A stretch of 64,000 nucleotides of DNA from Ruegeria aquimaris (lineage in GTDB: Bacteria; Pseudomonadota; Alphaproteobacteria; Rhodobacterales; Rhodobacteraceae): contig NZ_JAOWLB010000018.1 of NCBI RefSeq assembly GCF_025751555.1, positions 1 to 64,000 of the forward strand, read 5' to 3'. Both the position numbers and the translations under genes were made by a program. Every line of letters begins with the position of its first letter. Positions within the stretch are counted from its first letter, which is position 1. Under the pieces are notes generated by a model, which was given only the letters and a program-made list of their open reading frames with translations, made no database searches and was not told where the DNA came from. Below are positions 14,174 through 48,509 of this stretch, piece by piece.

Positions 14174-14189
14174 TCTAACAAATGTTAGA
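14174..14189. promoter_or_regulatory. TetR-type operator, site a
   Basis: TCTAACA-AA-TGTTAGA is a perfect 16-bp palindrome centred in the gap between the divergent AliB-like operon (GTG at 14133) and the flavoprotein gene (GTG at 14227). The same palindrome recurs at five other promoters in this window. A repressor bound here could control both transcripts. Confidence 0.85.
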
Positions 14190-14226
14190 ATGCAGATCAA
14201 GCGTAGTTTTGAGGAGGATGCCCACA

Positions 14227-16260
14227 GTGGGAAATAAGCCAACGGAGAGCTTTGGGACCATGCTCTCGCCCATCCGCGCAGGCCAGCATACATTGCGAAA
14301 TCGTGTCATCATGGGGTCGATGCACACGCGATTGGAAACCGAGCCTGACGGCATAGCTAAACAGATCGCTTTTTACTCTGAGCGGGCGCGGGGGGAGGCG
14401 GCGATTCTGGTCACCGGCGGGTTTTCGCCCAATGCCGAGGGCATATTCGATCCCGAAGGTCCGCGAATCGATGACCCGGAAGAAGCGCTTAGCCTGCGCC
14501 CGATCTGCGAGGCGGTGCAGGCCGAAGGCAGCCTGATCTGTGCCCAGATTTTGCATGCTGGCCGGTATGCAAAGATCGAAGGTTGCGTCGCGCCGTCACC
14601 GATTCGGTCTCCGATCAACCGGTTCATCCCGCGTGAAATGACCGAAGCCGACATTCTCCGTACCATCGAGGATTTTGCCGTGGCGGCCGCCAATGCGCAG
14701 GCCGCAGGCTTTGATGGCGTCGAGATTATGGGGTCCGAAGGGTATCTTCTCAACGAATTCACTGTCACACATACCAACAAGCGTGACGATGCGTGGGGCG
14801 GCAGCGCCGAAAACCGGCACCGCTTCCCGGTCGAGATCGTGCGTGCCGTACGCGACCGCTGCGGGCCGGATTTTCTGATTATCTACCGGATCTCGGCCGC
14901 CGATCTTGTCGAGGGCGGCGCACCTGCGGACGAAATCGCCGCGCTGGCCTGCAAGATCGAGGCGGCGGGTGCGGATATTCTGAACACCGGCATTGGCTGG
15001 CACGAGGCGCGCGTGCCGACGATTGCCTATCCGGTGCCGCGCGGTGCCTGGCGTAAGGCGGCAGCCAACGTGAAAGCGGCCGTGTCGATCCCGGTGGTCG
15101 CCTCGAACCGGATCAACACACCCCAGATTGCCGAAGACATACTTGCCTCTGGCGATGCGGACATGATCTCGATGGCGCGCCCGTTTCTGGCCGATCCGCA
15201 TTTCGTGAAAAAGGCGCGCGAGGGCCGCGCGGACGACATCAACACCTGCATTGCCTGCAACCAGGCCTGTCTGGATTTCATCTTTTCGGACCGGCCGGTG
15301 GGATGCCTGGTCAATCCAAGGGCCGGGCGCGAAACAGAATTCCGGGACACGCCAACCGACGCGCCAAGGAAAGTGGCCGTCGTTGGCGGTGGTGCAGCTG
15401 GCATGGCGACAGCCGCCGAGGCGGCGCGGTTGGGCCACGCCGTCACGCTGTTCGAAGCGCAGGACAAGTTGGGCGGTCAGCTGAATCTGGCCCGCGCCGC
15501 ACCAGGCAAGGGCGAATTCGACGAAACCTTGCGGTATTATGCCGGTCAGATGCAGAAACACGGGGTCACACAGTGTCTGGGACAGCAGGCAGAGGCGAGC
15601 GATCTTGACGGATTTGACCATGTGGTCATCGCCACCGGGGTCACGCCGCGCATTCCCGACCTGCCTGGTATCGACCATCCCAGCGTCGCGACCTACGCCG
15701 AAATTCTTTCCGGTGAACGCGTGGCGGGCGACCGTGTCGTCGTGATGGGGGCGGGGGGCATCGGTCATGATGTGGCCGAGTTCCTAGTGACCGAACCCGC
15801 CGAGACCGCCAACGCCGACGTCTTTTGCGAAACCTGGGGTGTGGATCCCGAGTTTGTCTCCTCGGGTGCCCTGGCGGGCGACCCTCTGGCACCGAAACCG
15901 TCGCGTCGCAAAGTTGTCATGCTGCAGCGCAAGACCGGGAAACCGGGCGCAGGGCTTGGTGTTTCGACAGGGTGGATCCTGCGCAACGCGCTGCGCAAAC
16001 ATGGGGTCGAGGCCATGGGCGGGGTGACCTATGAACGTATCGATTATGAGGGGCTGCACATCGTCGCGGACGGAAAGCCGACGGTCATGGCAGCCGATAC
16101 AATTGTGCTGTGTACCGGTCAGGAACCGGAACGGGCCCTGGCCCAAGAGCTTGCCGCGCGCGGCGTCCCGGTTACGATGATCGGCGGGGCAAAGGAGGCC
16201 GCCGAACTCGATGCATTGCGCGCTATTGATGAGGGTGTGCGATTGGCGCAAAGTTTCTGA
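14227..16260 (+). CDS. 2,4-dienoyl-CoA reductase (FadH)/old-yellow-enzyme type iron-sulfur flavoprotein
   Basis: The 677-residue protein has an N-terminal FMN-binding TIM barrel (residues ~10-340, with MLSPIRAGQHTLRNRVIMGS and GSEGYLLNEF). The 4Fe-4S motif CIACNQACLDFIF...GCLVNP follows, then FAD/NAD(P)H domains (VAVVGGGAAGMATAAEAARLG and VVVMGAGGIGHDVAEF). This matches bacterial 2,4-dienoyl-CoA reductase and BaiCD/BaiH-type enoate reductases, which reduce conjugated double bonds. The GTG start has GAGGAGG nine bases upstream; the ATG at 14218 touches that ribosome site and is less likely. It is the first gene right of operator a and is followed by a CoA ligase. Confidence 0.85.
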   Translation: MGNKPTESFGTMLSPIRAGQHTLRNRVIMGSMHTRLETEPDGIAKQIAFYSERARGEAAILVTGGFSPNAEGIFDPEGPRIDDPEEALSLRPICEAVQAEGSLICAQILHAGRYAKIEGCVAPSPIRSPINRFIPREMTEADILRTIEDFAVAAANAQAAGFDGVEIMGSEGYLLNEFTVTHTNKRDDAWGGSAENRHRFPVEIVRAVRDRCGPDFLIIYRISAADLVEGGAPADEIAALACKIEAAGADILNTGIGWHEARVPTIAYPVPRGAWRKAAANVKAAVSIPVVASNRINTPQIAEDILASGDADMISMARPFLADPHFVKKAREGRADDINTCIACNQACLDFIFSDRPVGCLVNPRAGRETEFRDTPTDAPRKVAVVGGGAAGMATAAEAARLGHAVTLFEAQDKLGGQLNLARAAPGKGEFDETLRYYAGQMQKHGVTQCLGQQAEASDLDGFDHVVIATGVTPRIPDLPGIDHPSVATYAEILSGERVAGDRVVVMGAGGIGHDVAEFLVTEPAETANADVFCETWGVDPEFVSSGALAGDPLAPKPSRRKVVMLQRKTGKPGAGLGVSTGWILRNALRKHGVEAMGGVTYERIDYEGLHIVADGKPTVMAADTIVLCTGQEPERALAQELAARGVPVTMIGGAKEAAELDALRAIDEGVRLAQSF

Positions 16261-16282
16261 GAACCCAAGGAAGGAGGCCGCC

Positions 16283-25735: not shown

Positions 25736-25751
25736 TCTAACAGTTGTTAGA
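25736..25751. promoter_or_regulatory. TetR-type operator, site b
   Basis: TCTAACA-GT-TGTTAGA, a perfect palindrome, sits between the divergent BadH-like gene and the tandem TetR gene. This makes the tandem TetR the leading candidate for the protein that reads the motif and regulates itself. Confidence 0.85.
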
Positions 25752-25796: not shown

Positions 25797-27161
25797 ATGG
25801 CACGACAGATTGAAGATACCAGGATAGTGAATGACGATCTAAGCAAGTCGGAGAGGACCCGCGAAGCCATACTCGCTGCGGCCGCGCGACTTTTTCGGTA
25901 TGAAGGCTATCACGCAACGACTATGCGCGACATCGCGCAGGAAGCTGGCATTGAGGCCGGCAGCATTTATTATCATTTTCAATCCAAGGACCAGATTCTG
26001 AGCGAAGTTCTCGATTTTGGCGTCCGTCAACTATATGAGGCGGTCAGTGAAATCGTTCGGTCGGCACCGACAAGTTCGGAGGATTTTCGCAAGACTTTCG
26101 GACTGCTGATTGAAACACACCTTACCTACCTATTGACCGACAGCGACTTTACGTCAGCCAATATTCGGAACTATCCGATGTTGTCGGACGAAACACGCGC
26201 CCCGCATCGCGAATTGCGTGCATCATATGCGGGTGTCTGGGGCAAATTCCTGAATGACGCCAAACGCGCCGGCCACCTTCGAAGCGACATATCCACTGCT
26301 GTGATCCGCCAGTTCATCCTAAGTGCCATGAACTGGACCGTAGAATGGTACGATGTCGACAAGTATCCGGTGCGCATCCTCGCGGAACGAATGAGTAAGC
26401 TGATACTTGACGGAATGTGTCCACATCGCAAGGCGGATACCGAAGGCTTGAAGCTGTGCCCCGCCACTCCCGCCAAAACCCCGGATCCCGACAGCAAGGC
26501 GGCTAAGACCCGTGCAGAAATTCTAAAGGCCGCAGCGCGCTTTCTGAGGGACAATGGCTACAAGGCGACCACGCTGAGAAAGATCGCGGAAGAAGCGGAC
26601 ATGAAAGCGGGCAGCGTCTATTACCATTTCAACTCCAAAGAAGCGATCGTTGACGAAGTTCTAAACGCCGGACTGAGGGACTTGCTATCAGGTGTCGAAG
26701 CCGCCGTTCGGAAATTCGATGCCCCGTACGATCATCACGCCAAGATCGCGACTGCAATCTGGGCGCACCTGGATTTCCTCTTCAAGGCAAGCGAATTCAC
26801 CTCGGCGAATATCAGAAGCTATGGAATGCTCCCCAATCATTTCAGGGAGAGGCACAGGGGTATTCGCCATGAGTATGGAAAACTCTGGGATCGGATACTC
26901 CTTGAAGCTCAGGACGACGGTGCCATACGGTCGGATATCAAGATCGTCCCCTTGCGCCAGGTGATGTTGGGTGCCTTAAACTGGACGGTGGAATGGTTCG
27001 ACCCGAACAAGGCAGGAGTGGAAGGATATCTATCACTGCCTGAATTCTCCAGCATGCTCATCAATCTGTTACTGGAAGGCATTTGTAACCGGGAAGCGGC
27101 CCCGTCCACAGGACAAGGTAGCCCTGAAAGCGGTTGCCCCGGTCAGACCAGAAGGAAGTGA
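25797..27161 (+). CDS. double TetR regulator: two full TetR units in one chain
   Basis: At 454 residues this is about twice the usual TetR length. Unit 1 has its helix-turn-helix at ~22-66 (MRDIAQEAGIEAGSIYYHFQ). Unit 2 has one at ~238-284 (LRKIAEEADMKAGSVYYHFN). The ligand-binding halves are also repeated: FTSANIRNYPML and MNWTVEWYD in unit 1, FTSANIRSYGML and LNWTVEWFD in unit 2. A charged, Pro-rich linker (~210-237) joins them. No stop or frameshift separates the units. One chain could act as a built-in dimer on a 16-bp palindrome. The 3' end overlaps the convergent thioesterase gene by 19 bp. The ligand is presumably a pathway CoA ester; this is inference. Confidence 0.9.
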   Translation: MARQIEDTRIVNDDLSKSERTREAILAAAARLFRYEGYHATTMRDIAQEAGIEAGSIYYHFQSKDQILSEVLDFGVRQLYEAVSEIVRSAPTSSEDFRKTFGLLIETHLTYLLTDSDFTSANIRNYPMLSDETRAPHRELRASYAGVWGKFLNDAKRAGHLRSDISTAVIRQFILSAMNWTVEWYDVDKYPVRILAERMSKLILDGMCPHRKADTEGLKLCPATPAKTPDPDSKAAKTRAEILKAAARFLRDNGYKATTLRKIAEEADMKAGSVYYHFNSKEAIVDEVLNAGLRDLLSGVEAAVRKFDAPYDHHAKIATAIWAHLDFLFKASEFTSANIRSYGMLPNHFRERHRGIRHEYGKLWDRILLEAQDDGAIRSDIKIVPLRQVMLGALNWTVEWFDPNKAGVEGYLSLPEFSSMLINLLLEGICNREAAPSTGQGSPESGCPGQTRRK

Positions 27162-32173: not shown

Positions 32174-32189
32174 TCAAACACATGTTAGA
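32174..32189. promoter_or_regulatory. TetR-type operator, site c
   Basis: TCAAACA-CA-TGTTAGA matches sites a and b with one change in the left half. It lies in the 114-bp gap between the divergent ACAD operon (minus) and the crotonase-AtuA-carboxylase B operon (plus), so it can control both. Confidence 0.8.
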
Positions 32190-32246: not shown

Positions 32247-33053
32247 ATGCGGGGGGGAGCTGTGGAAATGATTGAGAGCGTTGTCCAATCGCATGCGCGC
32301 GGCGGCGAATTACGTATTACGATTCGACGGCCCGACAGTCGAAATGCCCTCAACCGTGAGGTCGCGGACGGGATCATTGCCGCCATCCATGCTGCCGAGG
32401 GTGACAGCGATTGCCGAGTGATCGTTCTAACTGGCGAGGGCGAGCGAGCCTTCTGTGCCGGGGGCGACATCAAGGCGGGGGCGGATGGCGGCCCGTTTGT
32501 TCAGGATCCGGCGGACCCGGATCATTTTGCCGGAAGGTTGTTCGAGACGATACAGGCGTGCCGAAAGCCAACGATCGCGCGCATCAATGGCATCGCGATG
32601 GGGGCGGGGGCGGGCATCATCTGTGCCTGCGATCTGGCAGTGATGGCGGATCATGCCCGCATCGGAACGCCCGAAGTCAAGGTGGGCCTGTTTCCTATGA
32701 CGATCGTACCACCCATGATGCGCGTGCTGCCCCGGCGGAGGCTGATGGAAATGTTCATCACCGGCGTTCCCCTGACTGCCGAAGAAGCCCTGCAATTCAA
32801 TCTGGTCAACTATGTGACCGATGCCGCGGGGCTGGACGACAAGGTTGCAGAACTGGTTGCCCAGATTGCCGCGCAGTCGCCGAGCGCGATCCGGCTGGGA
32901 AAATACGCCTGTCACGCGATGGAGGACATGACCTATCCGCAGCAAATGCGGTTTGCAGAAACGTTATTACCCCGCGTTGCACAGACAGAAGACGCGCGCG
33001 AGGGCTTTGATGCCTTTATTGAGAAGCGCAAACCTGAATGGACGGGCCGCTGA
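32247..33053 (+). CDS. crotonase, AtuE/LiuC-like unsaturated-acyl-CoA hydratase
   Basis: The 268-residue crotonase has LTGEGERAFCAGGDIKAG and GIAMGAGAGIICACD. The first catalytic Glu is replaced by Gly, while the second is kept in GTPEVKVGLFPMTI. This one-Glu pattern is also seen in the LiuC-like protein at 50777-51571 and suits 3-methylglutaconyl- or isohexenylglutaconyl-CoA hydratases. The ATG has GGAGG seven bases upstream. It leads the operon with AtuA and carboxylase B, as expected for a hydratase acting on the carboxylase product. Confidence 0.8.
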   Translation: MRGGAVEMIESVVQSHARGGELRITIRRPDSRNALNREVADGIIAAIHAAEGDSDCRVIVLTGEGERAFCAGGDIKAGADGGPFVQDPADPDHFAGRLFETIQACRKPTIARINGIAMGAGAGIICACDLAVMADHARIGTPEVKVGLFPMTIVPPMMRVLPRRRLMEMFITGVPLTAEEALQFNLVNYVTDAAGLDDKVAELVAQIAAQSPSAIRLGKYACHAMEDMTYPQQMRFAETLLPRVAQTEDAREGFDAFIEKRKPEWTGR

Positions 33054-33074
33054 TCAAACGGGGAGGAGAGGAAT

Positions 33075-34874
33075 ATGTCGGATCAAAAGCTGCGCATCGG
33101 ATGCGCATCGGGATTTTGGGGCGATACGCCCGAAGCGGTCGGGCAGTTGGTTTCCCTCGGCGAGATCGACTATCTCGTCTTCGATTACCTGGCCGAAGTG
33201 ACGATGTCCTTGATGGCGCGTGCGCGCGCCAAGTCGCCCGAGGCAGGGTTCGCCCCGGATTTTGTCAAGGCGCTGACCCCCTGGCTGGCAGAGATCAAGC
33301 GCAAGAGGATCAAGGTGGTGGCCAATGCCGGCGGCGTGAACCCGCGCGGCTGCCGCGAAGCGCTGGCCAAGGCGGCTGAAGCCGCGGGCATCGACATATC
33401 AATCGGCGTCGTACTGGGGGACGACCTGCTGGACCAGGGCGACAAGATTCGCGACCGCGGCGTAACCGAAATGTTTTCGGGTGTGGATTTCCCCGACGAT
33501 ATCTGGAGTATGAACGCCTATCTCGGCGCCCGCCCAATCGCCGCAGCGCTGGATGCCGGGGCCGAGATCGTGATCACCGGCCGCTGCGCCGACAGCGCCG
33601 TGGCGCTCGGCCCCTTGATGCACGAATTCGGCTGGGGTGATGAAGATTGGGACAAGCTCAGCCAGGGATCGCTGGCGGGCCACCTGATCGAATGCGGGCC
33701 GCAGGGCACGGGCGGCAATTTCACCGACTGGCAGGAGGTGCCGGGCTGGGACGACATGGGCATGCCCATTGTCGAGGTCTTCGCTGATGGCAGCTTTGTC
33801 ATGACCAAAACGCCTGATACCGGCGGACTGGTCGTGCCCGGATCTGTCGGCGAACAGATGCTCTATGAAATAGGCAATCCGCGCGCCTACCTGCTGCCCG
33901 ATGTCATCTGTGACTGGTCTGGCGTTACGCTGGAACAGGTTGGCCCCGACCGGGTGCTGGTGAAGGGTGGCAAAGGCCTTGGACGTACAGGCAGCTACAA
34001 AGTGTCGGCGACCCATGCAGACGGCTGGCGCGCCGTTACCACTCTGACGCTGGCCGCCATCGACGCGCCTGCCAAGGCCGAGCGCGTCGCCGAGGCGATA
34101 CTGAAGCGCTGTCGCCGAATCTTCCGAGACCGCAACCTGGGCGATTTCCGCGAGGTCAGCGTCGAGGTGCTCGGCGCCGAGGCCGCCTATGGCGCGAACG
34201 CTCGGGCCCAGACGCGCGAGGTGGTTTTGAAAGTCGGCGTGACGCATGACGATCGAAGCGCGCTCAATATTTTCGCGGGAGAGATCGCGCCAATGGCCAT
34301 TTCCACCGCGCAGGGCCTGACCGGGTTCTTCGCCGGGCGGCCCAAGGTGCAGCCGGTGGTGAGGTTGTTCTCTTTTCTACAGGACAAGGCAGAAACGCCG
34401 GTCGCGGTCGAGGTTGACGGCAAGGCCGTACCGGTTACCCTCGCCAACGACGCCGTGCAGCTCGATGCGCCAGCTGCACCGGCGTTGGAAAGCCGTGAGG
34501 CCGGTCCGTACGCGGTCAAGGTGCGGCTGGTGGATCTGGCGTGGGGACGTTCCGGTGACAAAGGTGATATCGCCAATATTGGCATCCTCGCCCGCAAGCC
34601 GGACTACCTGCCTTACATCCGCTCGACGCTAACCGAGACGGTGGTCAAGGATTACTTCGCCCACCTGTGCAAGGGCCCGGTGGAACGCTTCGATCTGCCC
34701 GGAACAAACGCGCTGAATTTCCTGCTGCACGAATCCCTCGGAGGCGGCGGCATCGCCTCGGTCCGGATCGATCCGCAGGGCAAGGGCTTTGCGCAGATGC
34801 TACTAGACATCGAAATCCCCGTGCCGGCTGAACTGGCCGCGAGGGATGGACTGAACGCCGCGAACCGGAACTAA
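33075..34874 (+). CDS. AtuA-like acyclic terpene utilisation protein (DUF1446)
   Basis: In this 599-residue protein the N-terminal ~450 residues are the AtuA/DUF1446 domain: IGCASGFWGDTPEAVGQLV, VVANAGGVNPRGCREALAK, ITGRCADSAVALGPLMHEF and GTGGNFTDWQ. The C-terminal ~100 residues are the AtuA-associated domain with LVDLAWGRSGDKGDIANIGI and LNFLLHESLGGGG. AtuA of Pseudomonas is needed for growth on citronellol-type terpenes; its biochemical role is not established. The gene sits between an AtuE-like hydratase and a geranyl-CoA-carboxylase-like set, the same company it keeps in Atu clusters. Confidence 0.85.
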   Translation: MSDQKLRIGCASGFWGDTPEAVGQLVSLGEIDYLVFDYLAEVTMSLMARARAKSPEAGFAPDFVKALTPWLAEIKRKRIKVVANAGGVNPRGCREALAKAAEAAGIDISIGVVLGDDLLDQGDKIRDRGVTEMFSGVDFPDDIWSMNAYLGARPIAAALDAGAEIVITGRCADSAVALGPLMHEFGWGDEDWDKLSQGSLAGHLIECGPQGTGGNFTDWQEVPGWDDMGMPIVEVFADGSFVMTKTPDTGGLVVPGSVGEQMLYEIGNPRAYLLPDVICDWSGVTLEQVGPDRVLVKGGKGLGRTGSYKVSATHADGWRAVTTLTLAAIDAPAKAERVAEAILKRCRRIFRDRNLGDFREVSVEVLGAEAAYGANARAQTREVVLKVGVTHDDRSALNIFAGEIAPMAISTAQGLTGFFAGRPKVQPVVRLFSFLQDKAETPVAVEVDGKAVPVTLANDAVQLDAPAAPALESREAGPYAVKVRLVDLAWGRSGDKGDIANIGILARKPDYLPYIRSTLTETVVKDYFAHLCKGPVERFDLPGTNALNFLLHESLGGGGIASVRIDPQGKGFAQMLLDIEIPVPAELAARDGLNAANRN

Positions 34875-34886
34875 GAGGATAACGAC

Positions 34887-36356
34887 ATGACCATTTCGAA
34901 ACTTCTGGTCGCAAATCGGGGCGAGATCGCGGCGCGCGTGTTGCGCACCGCCAAGGCCCGCGGGCTTGCGACGGCCGTGTTGCGCCACGCCACGGAACAA
35001 GAGGGGCCTGCCCATCTGATCGCGGATGAGGTTGTGACCATCGACGGCCCGACACCGGTGGCAGCCTATCTCGATATTTCGCAGATCGTCGCGGCGGCAA
35101 CAAAGATCGGCGCGGATGCGGTGCATCCCGGCTATGGCTTTCTGTCCGAGAACGCGGCCTTCGTCGCGGCGCTGGAAGAGGCCGGCGTGACATTTGTCGG
35201 CCCCACCTCCCAGACCATCGACCTGATGGGCGACAAGGTCCGCGCCCGCGCCTTTGTCGAGGAACGCGGTTTTCCCGTCGCCCCCTCGGCGATCGAGGAT
35301 GATGATCCGGCGAGCTTTGTCGAACGCGCCCGCGCCGTTGGCTATCCGCTGCTCATCAAGCCCTCGGCCGGCGGTGGCGGCAAGGGCATGCGCGTCGTGC
35401 GCGAGGACAGCACGCTGGAGACCGAAATCGAAACCGCGCGCCGCGAAGGCGAACGGTATTTCGGTGACGGCCGTCTGTTTGTCGAACGCTATATCGAACG
35501 CCCGCGCCATATCGAGGTGCAGGTGATGGGCGACGGGCAGGGCAATGTCGTGCACTTCTGGGAACGTGAATGTTCGATCCAGCGCCGGTTCCAGAAGATT
35601 ATCGAGGAAACGCCCTCACCGGCGCTGACCCCCGAACAACGGGACGAAATCTGCGAAACCGCGGCCGGGATTGCCCGCGCCGTCAAATACCGCGGGGCGG
35701 GGACGGTCGAATTCATCTATGCGCAGGATGGGGCCTTTTATTTCCTGGAAATGAACACCCGCCTTCAGGTCGAACATCCGGTGACCGAACTGGTGACCGG
35801 CTTCGATCTGGTTGCCGAGCAGCTGCGTGTCGCGGCGGGCAAGGGCTTGAGCGCCGTGCAGGCGGATATTCCCCAAACCGGACACTCGATCGAACTGCGC
35901 ATCTGTGCCGAGGATGCGACGGCCGATTTTCGCCCCGCGATCGGCGATATCCGGCTGCTGGACGAACCCCAGGGCGAGGGTGTCCGCGTAGACAGCGGCA
36001 TTCTGGATGGCGGCAAGGTAACGACCGACTTCGACCCGATGTTGTCCAAGCTGATCGTGCATGGCCCGGATCGCGCGCAGGCCATCGCCCGTGCCCGGAA
36101 CGCGGTGCAGAACTATGTGATTCTCGGGGTGACGACCAATACCGGTTACCTGGATGCAATCCTTGCACATCCGGATTTCGCCTCTGGTGACGTTTCAACT
36201 GGCTTCCTGGCTGAACAATCCGAAACGCTGACCGCGCCGGGCGAAGATGTCTCTGACTTGCTGATGGCGGCGGCGGCCCTATCGGACGCGCGGCTGGTGA
36301 GTGACGTAATGCAGATACCGGAAATGTACCGCAAGATGGGCGGGTGGAGAAACTGA
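34887..36356 (+). CDS. carboxylase B biotin carboxylase subunit (split alpha)
   Basis: The 489-residue protein has a complete ATP-grasp biotin carboxylase: VANRGEIAARVLRTAKARG, HPGYGFLSENAAF, KPSAGGGGKGMRVVRED and MNTRLQVEHPVTE. Only ~40 residues follow the core, and there is no biotinyl domain; that lies in the next gene, which starts within the stop codon (TGATG). In typical geranyl- or methylcrotonyl-CoA carboxylases these domains form one alpha chain. The subunit carboxylates biotin using ATP and bicarbonate. Confidence 0.9.
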   Translation: MTISKLLVANRGEIAARVLRTAKARGLATAVLRHATEQEGPAHLIADEVVTIDGPTPVAAYLDISQIVAAATKIGADAVHPGYGFLSENAAFVAALEEAGVTFVGPTSQTIDLMGDKVRARAFVEERGFPVAPSAIEDDDPASFVERARAVGYPLLIKPSAGGGGKGMRVVREDSTLETEIETARREGERYFGDGRLFVERYIERPRHIEVQVMGDGQGNVVHFWERECSIQRRFQKIIEETPSPALTPEQRDEICETAAGIARAVKYRGAGTVEFIYAQDGAFYFLEMNTRLQVEHPVTELVTGFDLVAEQLRVAAGKGLSAVQADIPQTGHSIELRICAEDATADFRPAIGDIRLLDEPQGEGVRVDSGILDGGKVTTDFDPMLSKLIVHGPDRAQAIARARNAVQNYVILGVTTNTGYLDAILAHPDFASGDVSTGFLAEQSETLTAPGEDVSDLLMAAAALSDARLVSDVMQIPEMYRKMGGWRN

Positions 36357-36859
36357 TGCAACGGATTTTTCAGATCGACGGAGAAGAGACTGATTGCTGG
36401 CTGGGTCATGATGGCAGCCGGTTCGTGCTCAATACCCCCACTGGCGCTGTTGCCTGCCAATTGGACCCGACGGGTCTGCCGGGCGGGTATACGTTGCGGG
36501 CCAAGGGTGTTGTGCGCGAATTGCGACTGGTCGTGGGGCCGGAAGCAACTTTTGTGCATATGGACGGGCGAACCTATGAAGTCGGGCGGGTTGATCCCGC
36601 CGAACGCCTGGCCGGAAGCGACGGTGGCGCGAGCGATGACCGATTGGTGGCGCCCATGCCGGGTGTCGTGGTGTCGGTTGCGGTTAAACCCGGCGATGCG
36701 GTTGAAGAAGGCCAGCCGCTTCTGGTGATCGAAAGCATGAAGTTGGAAACCACACTGACGGCGCCGCGCGACGGGGTCGTTGCCGAAATGCCATTCGCCG
36801 AAGGCGACAGTTTTGGTCTGAAAGACATCCTGGCCCAATTGGCCCCGGAGGAGGAGTGA
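36356..36859 (+). CDS. carboxylase B biotin carboxyl carrier subunit (split alpha)
   Basis: This 167-residue protein has an N-terminal beta-rich region (residues ~1-85) resembling the BT domain that docks alpha on beta subunits. A biotinyl domain follows (MPGVVVSVAVKPGDAVEEGQ, then ESMKLETTL with the biotin Lys). It carries carboxybiotin from the upstream carboxylase to the transferase downstream. The break from the biotin carboxylase falls at a domain boundary, so it looks like gene fission rather than damage. Confidence 0.88.
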   Translation: MQRIFQIDGEETDCWLGHDGSRFVLNTPTGAVACQLDPTGLPGGYTLRAKGVVRELRLVVGPEATFVHMDGRTYEVGRVDPAERLAGSDGGASDDRLVAPMPGVVVSVAVKPGDAVEEGQPLLVIESMKLETTLTAPRDGVVAEMPFAEGDSFGLKDILAQLAPEEE

Positions 36860-36861
36860 CA

Positions 36862-38469
36862 ATGCGCAGGATTGAAAGTCAGATCGACACCAATGCCGCC
36901 GACTACAAGGCAAATTATGCCGCCATGTCTGAACGGCTGAAGGAATTCCACGCCCGCCAGCACGCGGCGCGTTTCGAACGCCCGCAACGCGATATCGACC
37001 GCCTTGCCCGCCAGAACAAACTGGGCGTGCGCGAGCGGTTGAAACTGCTGCTGGACCCCGGCACTCCGTTTTTGGAGTTTTCCACACTTGCCGCCTGTCG
37101 CGAATACGACGGCACCGTGCCCGGCGCCGCTGTGGTGACGGGCATCGGTATTGTGCAGGGCCGCGAGGTCGCCATCCACGCCAACGATGCCAGCGTCAAG
37201 GGCGGGGCCTGGTATCCACATACGGTAAAAAAGGTTGTGCGTCTTCTGGATGTCGCGCTGGAAAACCGTCTGCCGGTCATCCATATCTGCGACAGCGCGG
37301 GCGGTTTCCTGCCGCTGCAGCACGGGGTGTTTCCCGACCGGTATCTGGGCGGGCGGGTGTTCCGCAACCAGGTCAAGCTGAGCCAGGCCAATATCCCGCA
37401 GATTGCTGTGGTCGGCGGACACTGCACGGCTGGTGGCGCCTATGTGCCGACACTGAGCGACTACAACATCATCATCGAAGGCACAGGGGCGATTTTCCTT
37501 GGCGGTCCGCCGCTGGTCAAGGCAGCCACCGGCGAGGAGGTCGGCGTTCAGGAACTGGGCGGGGCGGTAATGCACACCTCGGTTTCGGGCACGGGCGACT
37601 ATCGCGCCGCGACCGAACAACACGCCTTTTCACTGGCCCGCGAGATTGTCGGCCAGTGGAAGCGTACGCCAAAAACAATCATCGAAACCGCGACCTTTGA
37701 AGAGCCTTACTATGACCCCAAAGAACTTTACGGGATCATTCCAAAGGACCGGAAAACCCAGTTCGACATGCGCGAGGTTCTGGCCCGGATCGTAGACGGT
37801 TCACGCTTTCACGAGTATCAGCCCGACTATGGCACCACGATGCTGTGCGGCTTTGCCCATATCTGGGGTTACAAGGTCGGCATTCTTGCCAACAACGGGG
37901 TGCTGTTCAACGACAGCTCGCTCAAGGCCGCGCATTTCATGCAGCTTTGCAACCAGAACCGGACGCCTCTGGTCTTCTTCCAGAACATCACCGGTTACAT
38001 GGTGGGCCGCGAATACGAAGAACGCGGCATCGCCAAGGACGGCGCCAAGATGCTGATGGCGCAGGGCGGCTCGGTCGTGCCGAAGTTCACCGTGATCGCC
38101 AATGCGTCTTACGGGGCCGGCAATTACGGCATGTGTGGGCGGGCCTGGGATGCGCGCACGCTGTTCATGTGGCCACAGGCCGAAATCGGCGTCATGGGGG
38201 CGGAGCAGGCCGCCAATACCATGGCTGATGTCAAAATCCGTCAGCTTCAGCGCGAAGGCAAAAAACTGTCGGAAGAGGAAATTGCCGCGATCCGCGAGCC
38301 AGTGCTGGAAAAGTACAGCCGGGACGTCGAAGCCTACACCTCGACGTCAGAGATATGGGACGATGGCATCCTCGACCCGGCGGATACGCGCAATGCGCTC
38401 GGCATGTCCATCTCGGCATCGCTAAATGCACCGATCGACGATCCGCATTATGGAATATTCCGCCTGTAA
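36862..38469 (+). CDS. carboxylase B beta subunit (carboxyltransferase, geranyl-CoA carboxylase-like)
   Basis: The 535-residue transferase has both halves: GAAVVTGIGIVQGREVAIH, ANDASVKGGAWY and HCTAGGAYVPTLSDYN, then FFQNITGYMVGREYEERG, ASYGAGNYGMCGRAWDAR and MWPQAEIGVMGAEQAANT. The pocket segment reads RYLGGRVFRNQ, where carboxylases A and C have QFGSIF and HFGNSF; Phe is replaced by Gly. A Phe-to-Gly difference is known to widen the pocket in geranyl-CoA carboxylase. ATG 36862 follows GGAGGAG; a GTG two codons earlier is the alternative. It ends the plus-strand operon. Confidence 0.85.
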   Translation: MRRIESQIDTNAADYKANYAAMSERLKEFHARQHAARFERPQRDIDRLARQNKLGVRERLKLLLDPGTPFLEFSTLAACREYDGTVPGAAVVTGIGIVQGREVAIHANDASVKGGAWYPHTVKKVVRLLDVALENRLPVIHICDSAGGFLPLQHGVFPDRYLGGRVFRNQVKLSQANIPQIAVVGGHCTAGGAYVPTLSDYNIIIEGTGAIFLGGPPLVKAATGEEVGVQELGGAVMHTSVSGTGDYRAATEQHAFSLAREIVGQWKRTPKTIIETATFEEPYYDPKELYGIIPKDRKTQFDMREVLARIVDGSRFHEYQPDYGTTMLCGFAHIWGYKVGILANNGVLFNDSSLKAAHFMQLCNQNRTPLVFFQNITGYMVGREYEERGIAKDGAKMLMAQGGSVVPKFTVIANASYGAGNYGMCGRAWDARTLFMWPQAEIGVMGAEQAANTMADVKIRQLQREGKKLSEEEIAAIREPVLEKYSRDVEAYTSTSEIWDDGILDPADTRNALGMSISASLNAPIDDPHYGIFRL

Positions 38470-38710
38470 AGGCGTGGTGCTGGCGGTGCACCGGCTTGCG
38501 CCAATCGCCAAGGTTCGAAGAACGGATCGAGGACCGGAATGCCCATGTCTGAAAGGGTCTTGGGACCCGTGCCAGATTTACGGATGGCGTCTAGTGAAAT
38601 GAGTTCGCTCAGATGTTTATGGCGTGTTCCTCGTCGCCAATCAACGAGCTGAACAGACCTCCAAGCCCAAGAGGTTACAATTTGACAGAATACAGATTTC
38701 CCACTATAAC

Positions 38711-38724
38711 CAAACAATCGTTTG
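38711..38724. promoter_or_regulatory. putative operator of the TetR at 38741
   Basis: CAAACAATCGTTTG has CAAAC/GTTTG arms around AATC and lies 16 bp before the TetR start. It differs from the common TGTTAG palindrome, which suits the different recognition helix of this TetR. The rest of the gap 38470-38740 shows no gene. Confidence 0.5.
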
Positions 38725-38740
38725 CTTTTATGTGTACGCT

Positions 38741-39352
38741 ATGCCAACTCTCGCCACCCACAAGCCGCAGGCCAACAACCGCCGGGAAATCGTTCTTGAG
38801 ATCGCCGCCGGGTTCTTTGTCCGCAAGGGTTTCAACGGCACGTCCATCCGCGACATCGCCAAGGAAGCGGGCATGTTGCCGGGGTCGCTTTACTATCATT
38901 TTCCTTCCAAAGAGGCCTTGCTGGTCGCTGTCTTTGAGGAAGGGGTCCAACGAATTAGCGCCGCCGCCGAAGCGGCGCTTGCGGCCTGTCAGGGCAACGC
39001 ATGGGAGCGGTTGCAGGCTGCGTGCGAGGCGCATCTTGTTACCCTTCTGGAAGGGAGCGACTTCGCGAGTGTGATCGTGCGCGTCCTCCCACAGGATGTA
39101 CCCGGGGCTGCGGAAGAACTGATCTCCCTGCGTAACGACTACGAAAAAACTTTCATTGCTCTGGTCGATGCCTTGCCCTTGCCGGCCGGAACTGATCGGA
39201 GCCTGTTTCGGCTTATGCTCATAGGGGCTCTCAACCATGTGCCGCTTTGGTATCGCCCCGGGAGAGAGACCCCGTCAAATCTTGCAAGGCAAATCGTGGC
39301 CAACCTGCGATTTGCGCAAGACAACACCAAGACAGAAGGGAAAAGAACATGA
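38741..39352 (+). CDS. TetR family regulator of the mutase genes
   Basis: The 203-residue TetR has its helix-turn-helix at residues ~15-60 (IRDIAKEAGMLPGSLYYHFP). The recognition helix begins LPGSLYYHF, unlike the AGS-(I/V)-YYHF of the other TetR units here. The ligand-binding domain keeps the shared end LMLIGALNHVPLWY. Its TGA overlaps the ATG of the mutase small subunit (ATGA), so it is co-translated with the mutase genes and probably regulates them. Several upstream in-frame starts exist, but the sequence before MPTLATHK is not TetR-like and contains the operator. Confidence 0.85.
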   Translation: MPTLATHKPQANNRREIVLEIAAGFFVRKGFNGTSIRDIAKEAGMLPGSLYYHFPSKEALLVAVFEEGVQRISAAAEAALAACQGNAWERLQAACEAHLVTLLEGSDFASVIVRVLPQDVPGAAEELISLRNDYEKTFIALVDALPLPAGTDRSLFRLMLIGALNHVPLWYRPGRETPSNLARQIVANLRFAQDNTKTEGKRT

Positions 39353-39777: not shown

Positions 39778-39792
39778 CAAGGGGTGCATGCG

Positions 39793-41481: not shown

Positions 41482-41485
41482 ACAT

Positions 41486-43784: not shown

Positions 43785-43808
43785 GCAGGGAAAAAGCCTG
43801 TTTTCGCG

Positions 43809-44210: not shown

Positions 44211-44710
44211 TGTCCGGGCCCCATCGTATTCAACTTGTCCAACAAGCTGTTCGTTCCCCGCGTAACCGAAAACGTGCCCATAGCACGGGCGACTTCGGGT
44301 TGCCCGTTTGTATCGAACCAGATACGGCCGCTGTTGAAAGCAACGTGCTGCGTCTGCCGGTAGCATTCCGTGAAAACCAGTATGTCGGCGCGCGACTGTG
44401 CGGGGCCCAGATATTCAACCCGCAGATCTATGGTCGCCATCGATTCGAGGTCCTCGACGGCAAGAAAATTGGCCAATCCAAAAGCGCTGTCGAGTAACGC
44501 GGTCAGTATCCCGCCGTGGAGCATGGTGCCTTCTTCATCGACGCAAAATTCCGGATTGTAGGGCATGCGAAGTTGAACGCCATCAAGTGCTGATCTTTCA
44601 ATCTGCAAATTCATTTCGGTGATGAAACCAAGCGCGCGTTCGTTCCAGACTTCAGCAGCGCGCGCCAATAATTTGGACGAGTTTTCGTTTTTTGTTTGTT
44701 TTTTCACCAT
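44207..44710 (-). CDS. hotdog thioesterase, pair 2 member A
   Basis: The 167-residue hotdog protein has FCVDEEGTMLHGGILTALLD and SMATIDLRVEYLGPAQSRAD. It parallels the protein at 27544-28026. The N terminus is Lys/Asn-rich (VKKQTKNENSSK), unlike pair 1. It is the first clear gene downstream of operator d on the minus strand. The repeated two-gene order and overlap suggest that a thioesterase pair was duplicated as a unit. Confidence 0.8.
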   Translation of the reverse strand: MVKKQTKNENSSKLLARAAEVWNERALGFITEMNLQIERSALDGVQLRMPYNPEFCVDEEGTMLHGGILTALLDSAFGLANFLAVEDLESMATIDLRVEYLGPAQSRADILVFTECYRQTQHVAFNSGRIWFDTNGQPEVARAMGTFSVTRGTNSLLDKLNTMGPGQ

Positions 44711-44915: not shown

Positions 44916-44931
44916 TCAAACATATGTTAGA
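44916..44931. promoter_or_regulatory. TetR-type operator, site d
   Basis: TCAAACA-TA-TGTTAGA, the same form as sites c and e, lies upstream of the second hotdog thioesterase pair. The gap 44711-45014 otherwise holds only the small frame at 44763-44909. Confidence 0.8.
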
Positions 44932-45040
44932 TTTCCTGACAAGTCCAAGCGAAGGCCACTGATAGATCCGTGTTCGCCCAGCCATCGCCAAGAGGAGCCC
45001 GGTAATAATATCGATGACCTGCTCCCCTCAGAGTCCGCGT

Positions 45041-45862
45041 TTATAAGTTAGCTCTGTTCAGGTTTTGGTCCTCTTTCGACCGTTGATGATATTCCCACGG
45101 GGTGAGCCCGTCGAGGCTCGTATGGGGGCGGTGATAGTTATAGTCTTCGCGCCAGGCGTGGATCAGATGGCTGGCATGGCGCAGATTTGAGAACAGGTGC
45201 TCGTTCAGACATTCGTCGCGCAATCGGCCATTGAAGCTTTCCACGAAGCCGTTCTGCATCGGTTTGCCCGGTGCGATGTAGTGCCACTCGACCTGCCGGT
45301 CCTCCTGCCATTTCAGGATCGCATTGCTGGTCAGTTCGGTGCCGTTGTCCGAGACCACCATGCAGGGATAGCCTCGCAGCTCGGCAATCCGGTCCAGTTC
45401 ACGTGCCACGCGGATACCGGAGAGCGATGTGTCAACAACCGTCGCAAGACATTCCCGGCTGAAGTCGTCAATCACGCACAGCACCCTGAACCTGCGCCCG
45501 CAGGACAAGCTGTCGGATACGAAGTCCAGGCTCCAGCGTTGGTTTAGCCCTTGCGGGATCGCCATGGGCGCTCTTGTCCCGATGGCGCGCTTGCGACCGC
45601 CCCGCTTACGAACTGTTAAGCCTTCTTCCCTGTAGATCCGATAGAGCTTCTTCCAATTCACCTGCCAGCCCTCGCGCTTGAGCAGGATGTGCAGACGGCG
45701 ATAGCCAAACCGTCGCCGCTCGCCGGACAACTCCCGCAGCCGCTGGCGCAGTTCCCTGTCCTCCGGCCTGGTTGGCCGTCGCCGGTAGACACGCGGATCG
45801 ATCCCGGCCAAAGCACAGGCTCGCCTTTGCGAATAACACCTTTCCTTCATGGCCCAGTCCAC
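45041..45862 (-). CDS. IS3-family transposase OrfB (DDE catalytic part)
   Basis: The product has 273 residues from a GTG at 45862. It has the HTH_21 region ([20 protein letters not shown]) and the rve-type DDE catalytic core: Asp in LDFVSDS, Asp in [15 protein letters not shown] and Glu in [15 protein letters not shown]. The C terminus [15 protein letters not shown] is typical of IS3-group enzymes. The frame is open upstream to the A-AAA-AAC heptamer in orfA, so the active transposase is probably an OrfAB fusion made by -1 frameshifting. Confidence 0.9.
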
Positions 45863-45885
45863 GGCTCTTCTCCGCGAGCCGGGCC

Positions 45886-46152
45886 TCAGAAGTTTTTTCC
45901 GAGCATTTCCTTGAGTGTCGCAACATCCATCATCTGCTCGGCCAGGAGCTTCTTCAGCTTCGCGTTCTCTGCTTCCAGTGTCTTCAGACGCTTGGCGTCG
46001 GACACTTCCATGCCGCCGTATTTAGAACGCCACTTGTAGAATGTTGCATCGCTGATCCCGTGCTTGCGGCACAGTTCCTTGGCTCCAAGCCCAGCCTGGT
46101 GCTCTTTCAGGATGCCGATAATCTGCTCTTCGCTGAAACGGCTTCTCTTCAT
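45886..46152 (-). CDS. IS3-family OrfA (HTH protein)
   Basis: The 88-residue protein has a helix-turn-helix ([20 protein letters not shown], then [20 protein letters not shown]) and a leucine-zipper-like helix ([18 protein letters not shown]). This is the standard OrfA/Tnp_1 form that binds the IS ends. It ends EMLGKNF just after a slippery heptamer from which OrfAB would be produced. Confidence 0.9.
45892..45898 (-). other. programmed -1 frameshift site A-AAA-AAC
   Basis: The minus strand reads GGA-AAA-AAC-TTC-TGA in the orfA frame, so the heptamer A-AAA-AAC sits two codons before the orfA stop. Slipping one base back continues as AAA-CTT-CTG-AGG into the open orfB frame. This is the classical signal used by IS3-family elements. 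Confidence 0.8.
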
Positions 46153-46312
46153 CGTCTGTCTCCTTCGTCAGAGAACAGACTAACCTCAAACCGCGGACTT
46201 TTCAGGGGAGCAGGTCATCGAGGTTGAGGCGTCCGCTCTACTTGACCCCTGCGATGGCGACCCACCACGGCTAGCTTAAACATTGACAGCAAGAGAAGTC
46301 GCAAATAAAAAT

Positions 46313-46328
46313 TCAAACACTTGTTAGA
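46313..46328. promoter_or_regulatory. TetR-type operator, site e
   Basis: TCAAACA-CT-TGTTAGA lies directly before the ribosome site AAGGAG of the thiolase gene. A repressor bound here would block access to the promoter or early transcript. Confidence 0.8.
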
Positions 46329-46342: not shown

Positions 46343-47533
46343 GTGGAACGGAGAAACAAAGCTTATGTCACGGGCGTTGGGATGGTTCCATTCCAGAAGC
46401 CGGGTAAATCCGAAAGCTATGACATCATGGCTGCGGCGGCGACCCGCGCCGCGCTCGCGGACGCAGGGCTCGATTATGACAAAGTTCAGCAAGCGTATGT
46501 GGGTTATGTGTATGGCGACAGTACCTGTGGCCAGCGCTCCTTGTATCGCGTCGGCATGACCGGGATTCCGGTGCTGAACGTCAACAACAACTGCTCGACC
46601 GGATCATCTGCGCTGTTCCTGGCCCGTCAGGCCGTGGAAAGCGGCGCGGTAGAGTGTGCCCTGGCGCTTGGTTTCGAACAGATGCAGCCCGGCGCGATCG
46701 GGGCAATGTTCCACGATCGGATCAGCCCGTTTGCGGCGTTCGACGAAGAGACGGATGATCTGGTTGGTAATGCTGAGATCCCGCTGGCCCTTCGCTATTT
46801 CGGTGGTGCGGGCAAGGCCCATATGGAAGAGTTCGGAACCACGCTTGAAACCTTTGCCAAGATCCGGGCCAAGGCCAGCCGACATGCGGCCAAGAATCCG
46901 GTTGCCCTGTTCCGGCAGGAAGTGACAGCGGATGATGTTATGGCAGCGCAGGTCGTTTGGCCCGGCGTTATGACCAAGCTGATGGCCTGTCCTCCGACCT
47001 GCGGCGCTGCCGCGGCGATTATCTGTTCCAAGGAATTTGCCGACAAGCACGGTCTCGACAGTTCTGTCCGCATTGCGGCTCAGGCCATGACGACGGACGG
47101 GCCGGAAACCTTCGATGCCCATGACATGCGCGAAGTCGTCGGATTCTCCATGGCCAAACGTGCCGCCGATCAGGTCTATGAGGCTGCAGGCATCGGGCCC
47201 GAAGACGTGGACGTGGTCGAGCTGCACGACTGTTTTGCGCATAACGAATTGATCACCTACGAAGCCTTGGGCCTATGCGGTCGCGGAGATGCGGCGAAGT
47301 TTGTGGACGACGGCGACAATACCTATGGCGGAAAATACGTGACCAACCCATCGGGCGGACTGTTGTCCAAGGGGCATCCTCTCGGGGCAACCGGGCTTGC
47401 GCAGTGTACCGAACTGGTCCAGCAGCTTCGCGGGCAGGCCGATGCGCGGCAGGTCGATGGCGCGCGGCTCGCACTCCAGCACAACCTGGGTTTGGGTGGG
47501 GCCTGTGTAACCACGCTTTATGAAAAAGCCTGA
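46343..47533 (+). CDS. SCP2-type thiolase (acetyl-CoA acyltransferase)
   Basis: The 396-residue thiolase of the sterol-carrier-protein-x subgroup has the nucleophilic Cys in NVNNNCSTGSSALFLARQ, the HDCFAHNELITYEALGLC segment and the C-terminal SKGHPLGATGLAQCTELV. It performs CoA-dependent cleavage of a 3-ketoacyl-CoA, the final beta-oxidation step, and the SCP2 group accepts branched chains. The start is a GTG with AAGGAG seven bases upstream. It is followed 24 bp later by an SDR that could make its substrate. Confidence 0.88.
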   Translation: MERRNKAYVTGVGMVPFQKPGKSESYDIMAAAATRAALADAGLDYDKVQQAYVGYVYGDSTCGQRSLYRVGMTGIPVLNVNNNCSTGSSALFLARQAVESGAVECALALGFEQMQPGAIGAMFHDRISPFAAFDEETDDLVGNAEIPLALRYFGGAGKAHMEEFGTTLETFAKIRAKASRHAAKNPVALFRQEVTADDVMAAQVVWPGVMTKLMACPPTCGAAAAIICSKEFADKHGLDSSVRIAAQAMTTDGPETFDAHDMREVVGFSMAKRAADQVYEAAGIGPEDVDVVELHDCFAHNELITYEALGLCGRGDAAKFVDDGDNTYGGKYVTNPSGGLLSKGHPLGATGLAQCTELVQQLRGQADARQVDGARLALQHNLGLGGACVTTLYEKA

Positions 47534-47557
47534 CATAGTCAAAAGGGAGGATCAGTC

Positions 47558-48388
47558 ATGACTGCAAAACTCGACGGGCGCGTGGCGCTGGTATCCGGTT
47601 CTGGCCGGGGTATTGGCCGTGAAATTGCACTCAAGCTGGCGTCGGAGGGGGCCCGCGTTGTCGTTAACGATCTGGATGCCGATCCCGCCAATGAAACTGC
47701 GGAAGCGATCCGCGCAGTCGGAGGCGAGGCCGTGGTCTGCGCCGGCAGTGTAACCGAGGACGGTTTCGCCGAGCGATTTGTTCAGACCGGTGTGGACAGC
47801 TTTGGCGGTCTGGATATCATTGTGAACAACGCCGGCTATACTTGGGACAGTGTCGTCCAGAAAATGACGGACGAACAGTGGCAGGCGATTATCGACGTTC
47901 ACCTGACCGCGCCTTTCAGGATCATGCGCGCTGCCCAGCCGGTGATCAGCGCCAAGGCCAAGGAAGAGGCTGCCGCCGGACAGGAGGTATTCCGCAAAGT
48001 TGTGAATATCTCGTCCATCGCGGGGACCGGCGGCAATGCCGGCCAGATCAACTATTCCGCCGCCAAGGCCGGTATCCTGGGGGTCACCCGGACAATGGCC
48101 AAGGAATGGGGCCGCTACAAGGTCAACGTCAACGCCGTGGCCTTCGGGCCGATCCGCACGCGATTGACCGAAGGCAGCGCGGACGGCGACAGCACGATCA
48201 AGGTCGAGGAAAAAGAGATCAAGGTCGGAGTGAACCCTGATCTTTTATCCCAGATGGAGCGCATGATTCCGCTGGGTCGTGTCGGCACCCCCGAAGAGGC
48301 AGCAGGCGCGGTCTATCTGTTCTGCGCGCCTGAATCGAACTTCATCTCGGGTCAGCATATAATTTGCGGCGGCGGCTTCACGATCTAA
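47558..48388 (+). CDS. SDR, probable 3-hydroxyacyl-CoA dehydrogenase
   Basis: The 276-residue SDR has VSGSGRGIGREIALKLASEG, NNAGYTWDSVVQKM, the Ser in ISSIAGTGG and YSAAK. Asp after strand 2 (VNDLDADP) points to NAD. It resembles the dehydrogenase part of multifunctional enzyme type 2 and the SDR at 4077-4991. Together with the thiolase upstream it forms the last two steps of a beta-oxidation turn under operator e. Confidence 0.85.
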   Translation: MTAKLDGRVALVSGSGRGIGREIALKLASEGARVVVNDLDADPANETAEAIRAVGGEAVVCAGSVTEDGFAERFVQTGVDSFGGLDIIVNNAGYTWDSVVQKMTDEQWQAIIDVHLTAPFRIMRAAQPVISAKAKEEAAAGQEVFRKVVNISSIAGTGGNAGQINYSAAKAGILGVTRTMAKEWGRYKVNVNAVAFGPIRTRLTEGSADGDSTIKVEEKEIKVGVNPDLLSQMERMIPLGRVGTPEEAAGAVYLFCAPESNFISGQHIICGGGFTI

Positions 48389-48493
48389 ATCCAATCGGTC
48401 GTCGGCTGTATGGAAATAGCAGTCGGCGGCCGCACTGTATTTTTGCGAATGTCCAGTTGGTTTCTTACAAAGTGCTTGACATTCGTCACGCAA

Positions 48494-48509
48494 CCTAACA
48501 AGTGTTAGT
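48494..48509. promoter_or_regulatory. TetR-type operator, site f
   Basis: CCTAACA-AG-TGTTAGT has a perfect CTAACA/TGTTAG core and lies 27 bp before the TetR gene that leads the carboxylase C operon. This fits autoregulation. Confidence 0.85.

What the first reader, a model, noticed from the sequence alone, without database searches (positions are those of the whole stretch)
14174..48509. One palindrome ties at least six promoters into a regulon
TCWAACA-NN-TGTTAGA occurs at 14174, 25736, 32174, 44916, 46313 and 48494, always 16 bp, always with a 2-bp centre and always just before start sites of catabolic or TetR genes. I did not notice it inside coding sequence. Three of the six sit in divergent gaps, so nine or more transcription units could be covered. 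This defines a single regulon spanning about 40 kb, and it includes genes whose role would not be guessed otherwise.
Basis: seen in the sequence. Interest (0 to 1): 0.85.

Follow-up and report, generated by a model that had tools for sequence, protein, structure and literature searches.

The report
Twin-headed repressor's catabolic regulon
A DNA palindrome repeated in front of about a dozen groups of break-down genes in a bacterium appears to be the landing site of an unusual two-in-one TetR repressor that travels with these genes, partly on plasmids, and so probably switches them together.

Summary
The palindrome is real. Five of six sites match exactly; 48494 has two mismatches. In the own genome all 9 places with at most one mismatch lie on the window's contig or on contig C16; at two mismatches 3 of 14 do. 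That gives twelve candidate operators over about 100 kb, if the two contigs adjoin as in relatives. The likely regulator is a 454-aa fusion of two TetR units (25797-27161). Nine of 292 genomes of the order have it; all 9 carry the strict motif, against 17 of 283 without it. The site lies just upstream of its gene in 78 of 80 named relatives, down to 53% identity. Eight of 12 sites keep one of two distances to a TTGA[CT] element (5% expected; distances chosen after inspection), which fits repression. On one complete conjugative plasmid all 9 sites (at most two mismatches) lie in the island. Corrections: 44916 is cut off by an insertion sequence; 48494 is a consistently different variant before a single TetR; the regulon is larger than 40 kb. 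The same 16-mer also stands beside an unrelated TetR elsewhere. Double-TetR repressors are known (Mce3R), but Mce3R binds a non-palindrome. Binding and substrate are untested.

The parts
14174..14189 (.). operator TCTAACAAATGTTAGA in the divergent gap between an acyl-CoA dehydrogenase gene run (12952-14181 -) and an OYE/2,4-dienoyl-CoA-reductase-like gene (14182-16260 +)
   Evidence: exact match; site at the orthologous promoter in 5 of 5 relatives read and on plasmid p5; TTGAT 5 bp away
25736..25751 (.). operator TCTAACAGTTGTTAGA between the BadH-like SDR gene (24910-25671 -) and the double-TetR gene
   Evidence: site with at most 2 mismatches in 78 of 80 named loci; 1.78 bits in the palindrome against 0.56 in flanks over 29 nonredundant promoters
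25797..27161 (+). double TetR (454 aa), two fused TetR units, N unit 43% identical to C unit; proposed regulator
   Evidence: orthologues in 9 of 292 genomes including the own one; among 153 PDB sequence hits is the double TetR Mce3R 9b7y, E 3.1e-15, ranked below single TetRs
32174..32189 (.). operator TCAAACACATGTTAGA in the divergent gap between an acyl-CoA dehydrogenase gene run (30918-32183 -) and the enoyl-CoA hydratase/AtuA/carboxylase gene run (32247 +)
   Evidence: 5 of 5 relatives read; TTGAC 4 bp away on one side, TTGAT 5 bp on the other
44916..44931 (.). operator TCAAACATATGTTAGA, probably the distal operator of the thiolase promoter, now separated from it by an IS
   Evidence: two sites 82 bp apart precede the orthologous thiolase gene in G152 and G194 and on plasmid p5; in G147 the second one is weaker (3 mismatches, read); the IS lies between the window's two sites
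45015..46217 (-). IS element (IS3-type by recall) with an rve transposase; inverted ends TGACCTGCTCCCCT..., TCGA on both flanks
   Evidence: Pfam rve_3/rve/HTH_21/rve_2; ends
46313..46328 (.). operator TCAAACACTTGTTAGA directly after a TTGACA-N17-TAAAAA promoter-like sequence, before the thiolase gene 46343-47533 +
48494..48509 (.). variant operator CCTAACAAGTGTTAGT before the single TetR gene and downstream acyl-CoA carboxylase genes
   Evidence: a site beginning CC upstream of 10 of 12 single-TetR genes, the own one included, and on p5
48521..49165 (+). single TetR (214 aa, TetR_C_24), 34-35% identical to either unit of the double TetR
   Evidence: found in 12 of 292 genomes including the own one
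38624..39352 (+). third TetR (TetR_C_24), no site with up to 3 mismatches listed beside it; next to methylmalonyl-CoA-mutase-type genes
32247..38469 (+). likely target gene run: enoyl-CoA hydratase, AtuA, biotin carboxylase, biotin carrier, carboxyltransferase
   Evidence: operon structure inferred
1265..14181 (-). likely target gene run: acyl-CoA dehydrogenases, enoyl-CoA hydratase, PaaK-like ligase, acyl-CoA carboxylase, HMG-CoA lyase, SDR, dehydratase-like; 3283-4092 named citryl-CoA lyase only from its counterpart on p5
   Evidence: operon structure inferred
46343..48388 (+). likely target gene run: thiolase and SDR

Best explanation
The palindrome YCTAACA-NN-TGTTAGR is the operator of a fused double-TetR repressor encoded at 25797-27161. 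One polypeptide carries two similar helix-turn-helix units, which I infer grip the two half-sites. It sits on the -10 region or the spacer of each promoter, blocks RNA polymerase, and represses itself and about a dozen gene runs of a mobile catabolic island for branched or isoprenoid-like acyl-CoA substrates. A pathway intermediate, probably an acyl-CoA, releases it. The single TetR at 48521 binds the slightly different site in front of itself and its carboxylase genes, with possible cross-talk. Shown here: site distribution, co-occurrence, conservation, promoter geometry. Inferred: binding, repression, ligand, substrate.
For: Own genome: 9 of 9 places with at most 1 mismatch lie on contigs C9 and C16. 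Nine of 9 genomes with the double TetR carry the strict motif, 17 of 283 without it do (Fisher p 8e-11; three or more sites: 8 of 9 against 1 of 283, p 7e-14; the reversed control rang once each in 6 of 292 genomes by my count, none of the 9). Site upstream of the double-TetR gene in 78 of 80 named loci. Sites at orthologous promoters in five relatives. 1.78 against 0.56 bits over 29 nonredundant promoters. TTGAC within 0-40 bp of 30 of 63 sites against 8.8% of random intergenic positions; TTGA[CT] at 3-6 or 19-24 bp in 8 of 12 own sites against 5%. Plasmid p5: 9 of 9 sites with at most 2 mismatches lie in the island, none in the other 64 kb. Single-TetR relatives also occur in G103, G067 and G175, which have neither the double TetR nor the strict motif, so the double TetR is the better partner.
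Against: At 2 mismatches only 3 of 14 places lie on C9 or C16, so C16 25455, C16 50077 and 48494 rest on conservation in relatives. G256 has three island operators but no detected double TetR. L117 (Acidocella) has the protein without the site. The string TCTAACATATGTTAGA also stands beside an unrelated TetR gene in 9 genomes. Mce3R, a solved double TetR, binds a non-palindromic site (PMC11667970, passages). Relatives share the island by transfer, so genomes are not independent. Four of 12 own sites fail the spacing test, whose distances I chose. The promoters in the footprint were picked by having the site, and the 16 bp just downstream of it are also conserved (up to about 1.4 bits).
Confidence: 0.75

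Rival explanations
1. The single TetR at 48521 is the master regulator of all sites and the double TetR only one of its targets.
For: Its DNA-binding region is 44-51% identical to those of the double TetR, a related site precedes its own gene, and relatives of it occur in all 9 double-TetR genomes.
Against: Relatives also occur in G103, G067 and G175, which have no strict motif. Its own site differs consistently (10 of 12 begin CC, 7 of 12 end GTTAGT).
Confidence: 0.12
2. Both proteins bind all sites with different affinity, giving an overlapping two-regulator network (compatible with, and partly contained in, the best explanation).
For: Similar recognition regions (AGSIYYHF/AGSVYYHF) and operators differing mainly in the outer bases.
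Against: The outer-base difference is kept across relatives, which suggests separation.
Confidence: 0.3
3. The sites are shared only because the island spread recently; the palindrome has no function.
For: Patchy distribution (absent from G103 of the same genus), 98% protein identity across genera and plasmid carriage.
Against: The palindrome keeps 1.78 bits while flanks average 0.56 over nonredundant promoters, and it persists to 53% protein identity, in Bradyrhizobium.
Confidence: 0.03
4. The sites are bound by an activator rather than a repressor.
For: TetR-family activators exist (AtrA, PMC3511530, passage).
Against: The palindromes overlap the inferred -10 or spacer.
Confidence: 0.08

Closest known systems
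Mce3R of Mycobacterium tuberculosis (double TetR repressor, PDB 9b7y)
   Same: Two TetR units fused in one polypeptide; phmmer match E 3.1e-15; regulated genes tied to lipid/cholesterol metabolism (PMC11667970, passages).
   Different: Its two 25-bp operator sites are non-palindromic (same passages). Here the site is a near-symmetric 16-bp palindrome at about 12 promoters in alphaproteobacteria. Several single TetRs score higher by sequence.
KstR regulon of mycobacteria
   Same: An autoregulating TetR with a short palindrome overlapping the -10 at many promoters of a lipid-catabolic regulon (PMC1995591, passages including part of the abstract).
   Different: KstR is a single-unit protein binding as a dimer to TnnAACnnGTTnnA (2 bp between AAC and GTT); here the gap is 4 bp and the protein is fused. 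No KshA_C match in this genome.
AtuR of Pseudomonas aeruginosa (acyclic terpene utilisation)
   Same: A TetR-like repressor (PMC3511530, passage); AtuA and acyl-CoA carboxylase genes stand behind an operator here too.
   Different: AtuR's operator was not read here; that it uses inverted repeats is recalled. The regulon here is larger and the regulator fused.
Double TetR on a Rhodococcus plasmid (H55, pRB98)
   Same: 29.7% identical over 91% of the length; neighbours include HMG-CoA lyase, OB-fold protein, thiolases, CaiB and acyl-CoA dehydrogenases.
   Different: No site within 2 mismatches in the 19 kb read; an inverted repeat CCTAATC-CA-GATTAGG stands upstream, not the best-scoring repeat there and not tested for chance.

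Membership tests
TetR family repressors | N-terminal TetR helix-turn-helix domain | tested here: met
   NCBIfam TetR-type hits in two stretches of the 454-aa protein; Pfam TetR_N in the two single TetRs
TetR family repressors | binds a short palindrome near its own gene | not testable with these tools
   a site is present in 78 of 80 loci; binding itself not shown
double-TetR repressors | two TetR units in one polypeptide | tested here: met
   units 43% identical to each other; both units aligned without a break in 9 of 9 genomes; flags one TGA in three of them (G264, G194, G203), which searches place at the C-terminal end
Mce3R-type DNA recognition | asymmetric, non-palindromic operator | tested here: not met
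   the candidate site is palindromic and conserved; hence not filed as a Mce3R-like binder; actual binding untested
steroid 9,10-seco pathway | 3-ketosteroid 9-alpha-hydroxylase KshA | tested here: not met
   PF19298: 0 matches in the own genome; only this marker was tested, and the control rang in 1 of 14 genomes, above cut-off in none
KstR regulon | motif TnnAACnnGTTnnA | tested here: not met
   sites have AAC-N4-GTT against AAC-N2-GTT (PMC1995591)
Atu/isoprenoid catabolism | AtuA with acyl-CoA carboxylase | tested here: met
   PF07287 E 5.9e-142, biotin carboxylase and carboxyltransferase in one gene run
Atu/isoprenoid catabolism | growth on terpenes | not testable with these tools
   none

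The most novel reading that the evidence does not exclude
A single-chain TetR pseudo-dimer reads a symmetric operator with its two fused heads and, having two ligand-binding regions, could act as a two-signal gate. It travels with a partly plasmid-borne catabolic island of a dozen operators as a self-contained regulatory module, and arose from a single TetR whose present-day relative keeps a slightly shifted operator in the same island.
Probability: 0.35. Interest if true: 0.68.

Novelty: new variant of a known kind. Interest (0 to 1): 0.56.

Why it matters
It gives a defined operator, a named candidate regulator and a list of target gene runs for a large, mobile, poorly annotated catabolic island found in many roseobacters and on conjugative plasmids. 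It also offers a natural comparison, double against single TetR in one island, for how fused TetR proteins recognise DNA, where the solved case seen here (Mce3R) uses a non-palindromic site.

Tried and rejected
Steroid 9,10-seco catabolism: suggested by the Ltp/ChsH2-like genes on C16, set aside because KshA_C gave no match (one marker, weak control). Alkane catabolism as the core function: AlkB is on C16 with aldehyde dehydrogenase, GMC oxidoreductase, ligase and thiolase genes and an 870-aa protein with a LuxR-type C-terminus, but the gene table of plasmid p5 lists no alkane monooxygenase (that table is incomplete by design), so it looks like an add-on. The motif alone as proof of the regulon: rejected, since 9 genomes carry TCTAACATATGTTAGA beside another TetR. 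A link to CrgA/alkB2: dropped, the matches were oligonucleotides (passages). One search (protein C16 17445-18191) found no solved relative; (AtuA) none; one search gave only generic CoA transferases. PMC6850023 (pristane proteome) was opened at passages and bore on nothing here.

Not in print: one search looked for TCTAACA, TGTTAGA and TetR together (61 papers, 10 listed, two opened at passages); none described this motif. (listings seen only) showed no such regulon; one search returned nothing; one search was mostly chemistry noise. The library is open-access only.

G183, G194 and G219 were fetched only in part, so missing sites there are not all true absences. Sites in relatives with no labelled counterpart here: G194 58536 and 63260 (the latter inside a predicted ORF), G183 10236 and 10282, G219 24857 and G219b 2096. 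One search asked for at least 5 palindromic pairs; it lists the same number of sites (63).
Full report
OBSERVATION. The six coordinates each hold a 16-bp near-palindrome with a 2-bp centre. Five match TCWAACANNTGTTAGA exactly; 48494 differs at both outer bases. With up to 3 mismatches there are 13 strand matches in the window against a shuffled mean of 1.81 and maximum of 7. In the own genome (5.04 Mb, 61 contigs) TNWAACANNTGTTWNA gives 7 sites and 0 for the reversed control: five in the window, two on contig C16. With up to 3 mismatches there are 109 forward and 112 reverse matches, fewer than the reversed control (176 and 188), so loose matches mean nothing. By place, 9 of 9 at 0-1 mismatch lie on C9 or C16; at 2 mismatches 3 of 14 do. 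Twelve candidate operators follow: C9 14174, 25736, 32174, 44916, 46313, 48494; C16 291, 18184, 21852, 25455, 50077, 52557. The three at 2 mismatches (48494, C16 25455, C16 50077) rest on their conservation in relatives.

EXTENT. In G147, G152 and G194 the counterpart of the leftmost catabolic gene of C9 lies next to the counterpart of the first gene of C16, and both contigs begin with the same 80-bp repeat (98.75%). I infer that C9 (reversed) and C16 adjoin, which gives about 100 kb with twelve operators.

REGULATOR. The gene beside 25736 encodes 454 aa with two TetR units, 43% identical to each other and 34-35% to the single TetR at 48521. In 292 genomes of the order 9 have it at E at most 1e-60, the own one included; G103 of the same genus does not. 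The strict motif TCWAACANNTGTTWGA occurs in 26 of 292 genomes: all 9 of these (7, 5, 7, 3, 7, 1, 6, 6 and 5 sites) and 17 of 283 others (Fisher p 8e-11; the genomes are not independent, because the island moves). G203, with one strict site, has 9 at up to one mismatch. The reversed control rang once each in 6 genomes by my count.

EXCEPTIONS. I fetched a site neighbourhood for all 17 exceptions. Nine hold TCTAACATATGTTAGA beside a TetR gene; eight of these proteins are 51-69% identical to the ninth, and all are only distantly related to ours. In the two loci whose neighbour I read by eye (L175, L178) it looks like an RND adaptor; no family search was run. Seven have single matches, six of them inside predicted ORFs. 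G256 has three island operators without a detected double TetR. An AtuA search of G256 found only a 43% relative while the control G147 rang at 88%, so that part of the island is lost or unassembled there.

NAMED RELATIVES. A scan of genome contigs with alignment A1 kept 80 loci (226 stretches encode a relative; the best 80 are kept), mostly roseobacters, also Rhizobiales and others, down to 53% identity. Within 300 bp upstream 78 of 80 have the site with at most 2 mismatches (45 exact, 27 with one, 6 with two); L106 is cut at the contig edge and L117 lacks it. The control stretch inside the gene gave 4-7 mismatches. Over 29 nonredundant promoters the 14 specified bases hold 1.78 bits against 0.56 in the flanks; these promoters were picked by having the site (78 of 80 do), and the 16 bp just downstream are conserved too, up to about 1.4 bits.

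ORTHOLOGOUS PROMOTERS. In five relatives read around the sites (G183, G194 and G219 in part only), sites with at most 2 mismatches stand at the promoters matching 14174, 25736, 32174, C16 18184 (in G183 by one flanking gene only) and C16 21852 in 5 of 5; the thiolase promoter in 4 of 5; C16 50077 in 4; C16 291 and C16 25455 in 3; 48494 and C16 52557 in 2. Six further sites there have no labelled counterpart here (see Tried and rejected).

PROMOTER GEOMETRY. TTGAC stands within 0-40 bp of 30 of 63 sites, own and relatives', against 8.8% of 20,000 random intergenic positions. The distances looked fixed, so I then tested TTGA[CT] at 3-6 or 19-24 bp: 8 of 12 own sites against 5% (distances chosen). 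Such distances place the palindrome over the -10 or the spacer. The four that fail are 44916, 48494 (TTGAC at 12 bp), C16 25455 and C16 52557.

THE TWO ODD SITES. 44916 and 46313 flank an IS (45015-46217, TCGA on both flanks). In G152 and G194 and on plasmid p5 two sites 82 bp apart precede the orthologous thiolase gene; in G147 the second is weak (3 mismatches, read). Without the IS the window's pair would be about 174 bp apart, so the correspondence is likely but not exact. 48494: upstream of the single-TetR gene in 12 genomes, own included, 10 of 12 have a site beginning CC (nine CCTAAC, one CCTACC) and 7 of 12 end GTTAGT. Three of these genomes (G103, G067, G175) lack the double TetR and the strict motif.

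COMPLETE REPLICON. The double TetR is found on 42 of 72,556 plasmid records at E at most 1e-40, 13 predicted conjugative; 21 of the 42 are one genus, Pseudosulfitobacter, and three are Rhodococcus at 30% identity. On plasmid p5 of Sagittula sp. MA-2 (141 kb, predicted conjugative) all 9 sites with at most 2 mismatches lie between annotated genes of the 77-kb island and none in the other 64 kb; three further 3-mismatch matches were counted but not printed there. One such, CCTAACAGGCGTTAGT, stands upstream of its single TetR.

FUNCTION OF THE ISLAND. Acyl-CoA dehydrogenases, CaiB-type CoA transferases, Ltp-like thiolase with OB-fold protein, three acyl-CoA carboxylases, AtuA, HMG-CoA lyase, methylmalonyl-CoA-mutase-type genes and two ABC-transporter groups. 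This fits degradation of a branched or isoprenoid-like acid (inference; substrate unknown). AlkB (E 7.7e-169 to 8sbb) is on C16 but not in the gene table of p5. KshA_C gave no match.

COMPARISON. Mce3R is the nearest known architecture (PMC11667970, passages only), but its operator is non-palindromic. KstR (PMC1995591, passages) is the nearest in regulon logic. I found no paper describing this motif or regulon in the searches named under Tried and rejected, which cover an open-access library only.

The count of sites at two mismatches, the TGA flags, the G147 second site, the post-hoc choice of distances and the uncounted 3-mismatch places on p5 were mended; confidence went from 0.76 to 0.75 because three sites rest on conservation alone.

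Noticed in passing
L174-L182: Nine genomes of the order carry the identical 16-mer TCTAACATATGTTAGA beside an unrelated TetR gene (beside what looks like an RND adaptor gene in the two loci read by eye): possibly convergent operators.
   Followed up: partly
L197 8688-8703: A Rhodococcus plasmid double TetR (30% identical) has an inverted repeat CCTAATC-CA-GATTAGG upstream, the same 7-2-7 layout with related half-sites, and an HMG-CoA lyase/OB-fold/thiolase neighbourhood. Another repeat there scores higher.
   Followed up: partly
window 38624-44710: TetR, methylmalonyl-CoA-mutase-type, MeaB, TauD and thioesterase genes stand where plasmid p5 is annotated with only a hexapeptide transferase gene: an accessory insert in the island.
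   Followed up: no
C9 1-80 and C16 1-80: Both contigs of the own assembly begin with the same 80-bp repeat, and C16 134-233 resembles C9 1281-1380 in reverse (74.5%), suggesting a mobile element or recombination at the junction.
   Followed up: partly
L173 1339-3951: 870-aa protein with a LuxR-type C-terminus near AlkB and a ferredoxin-reductase-like gene, of the size of AlkS (size recalled).
   Followed up: no
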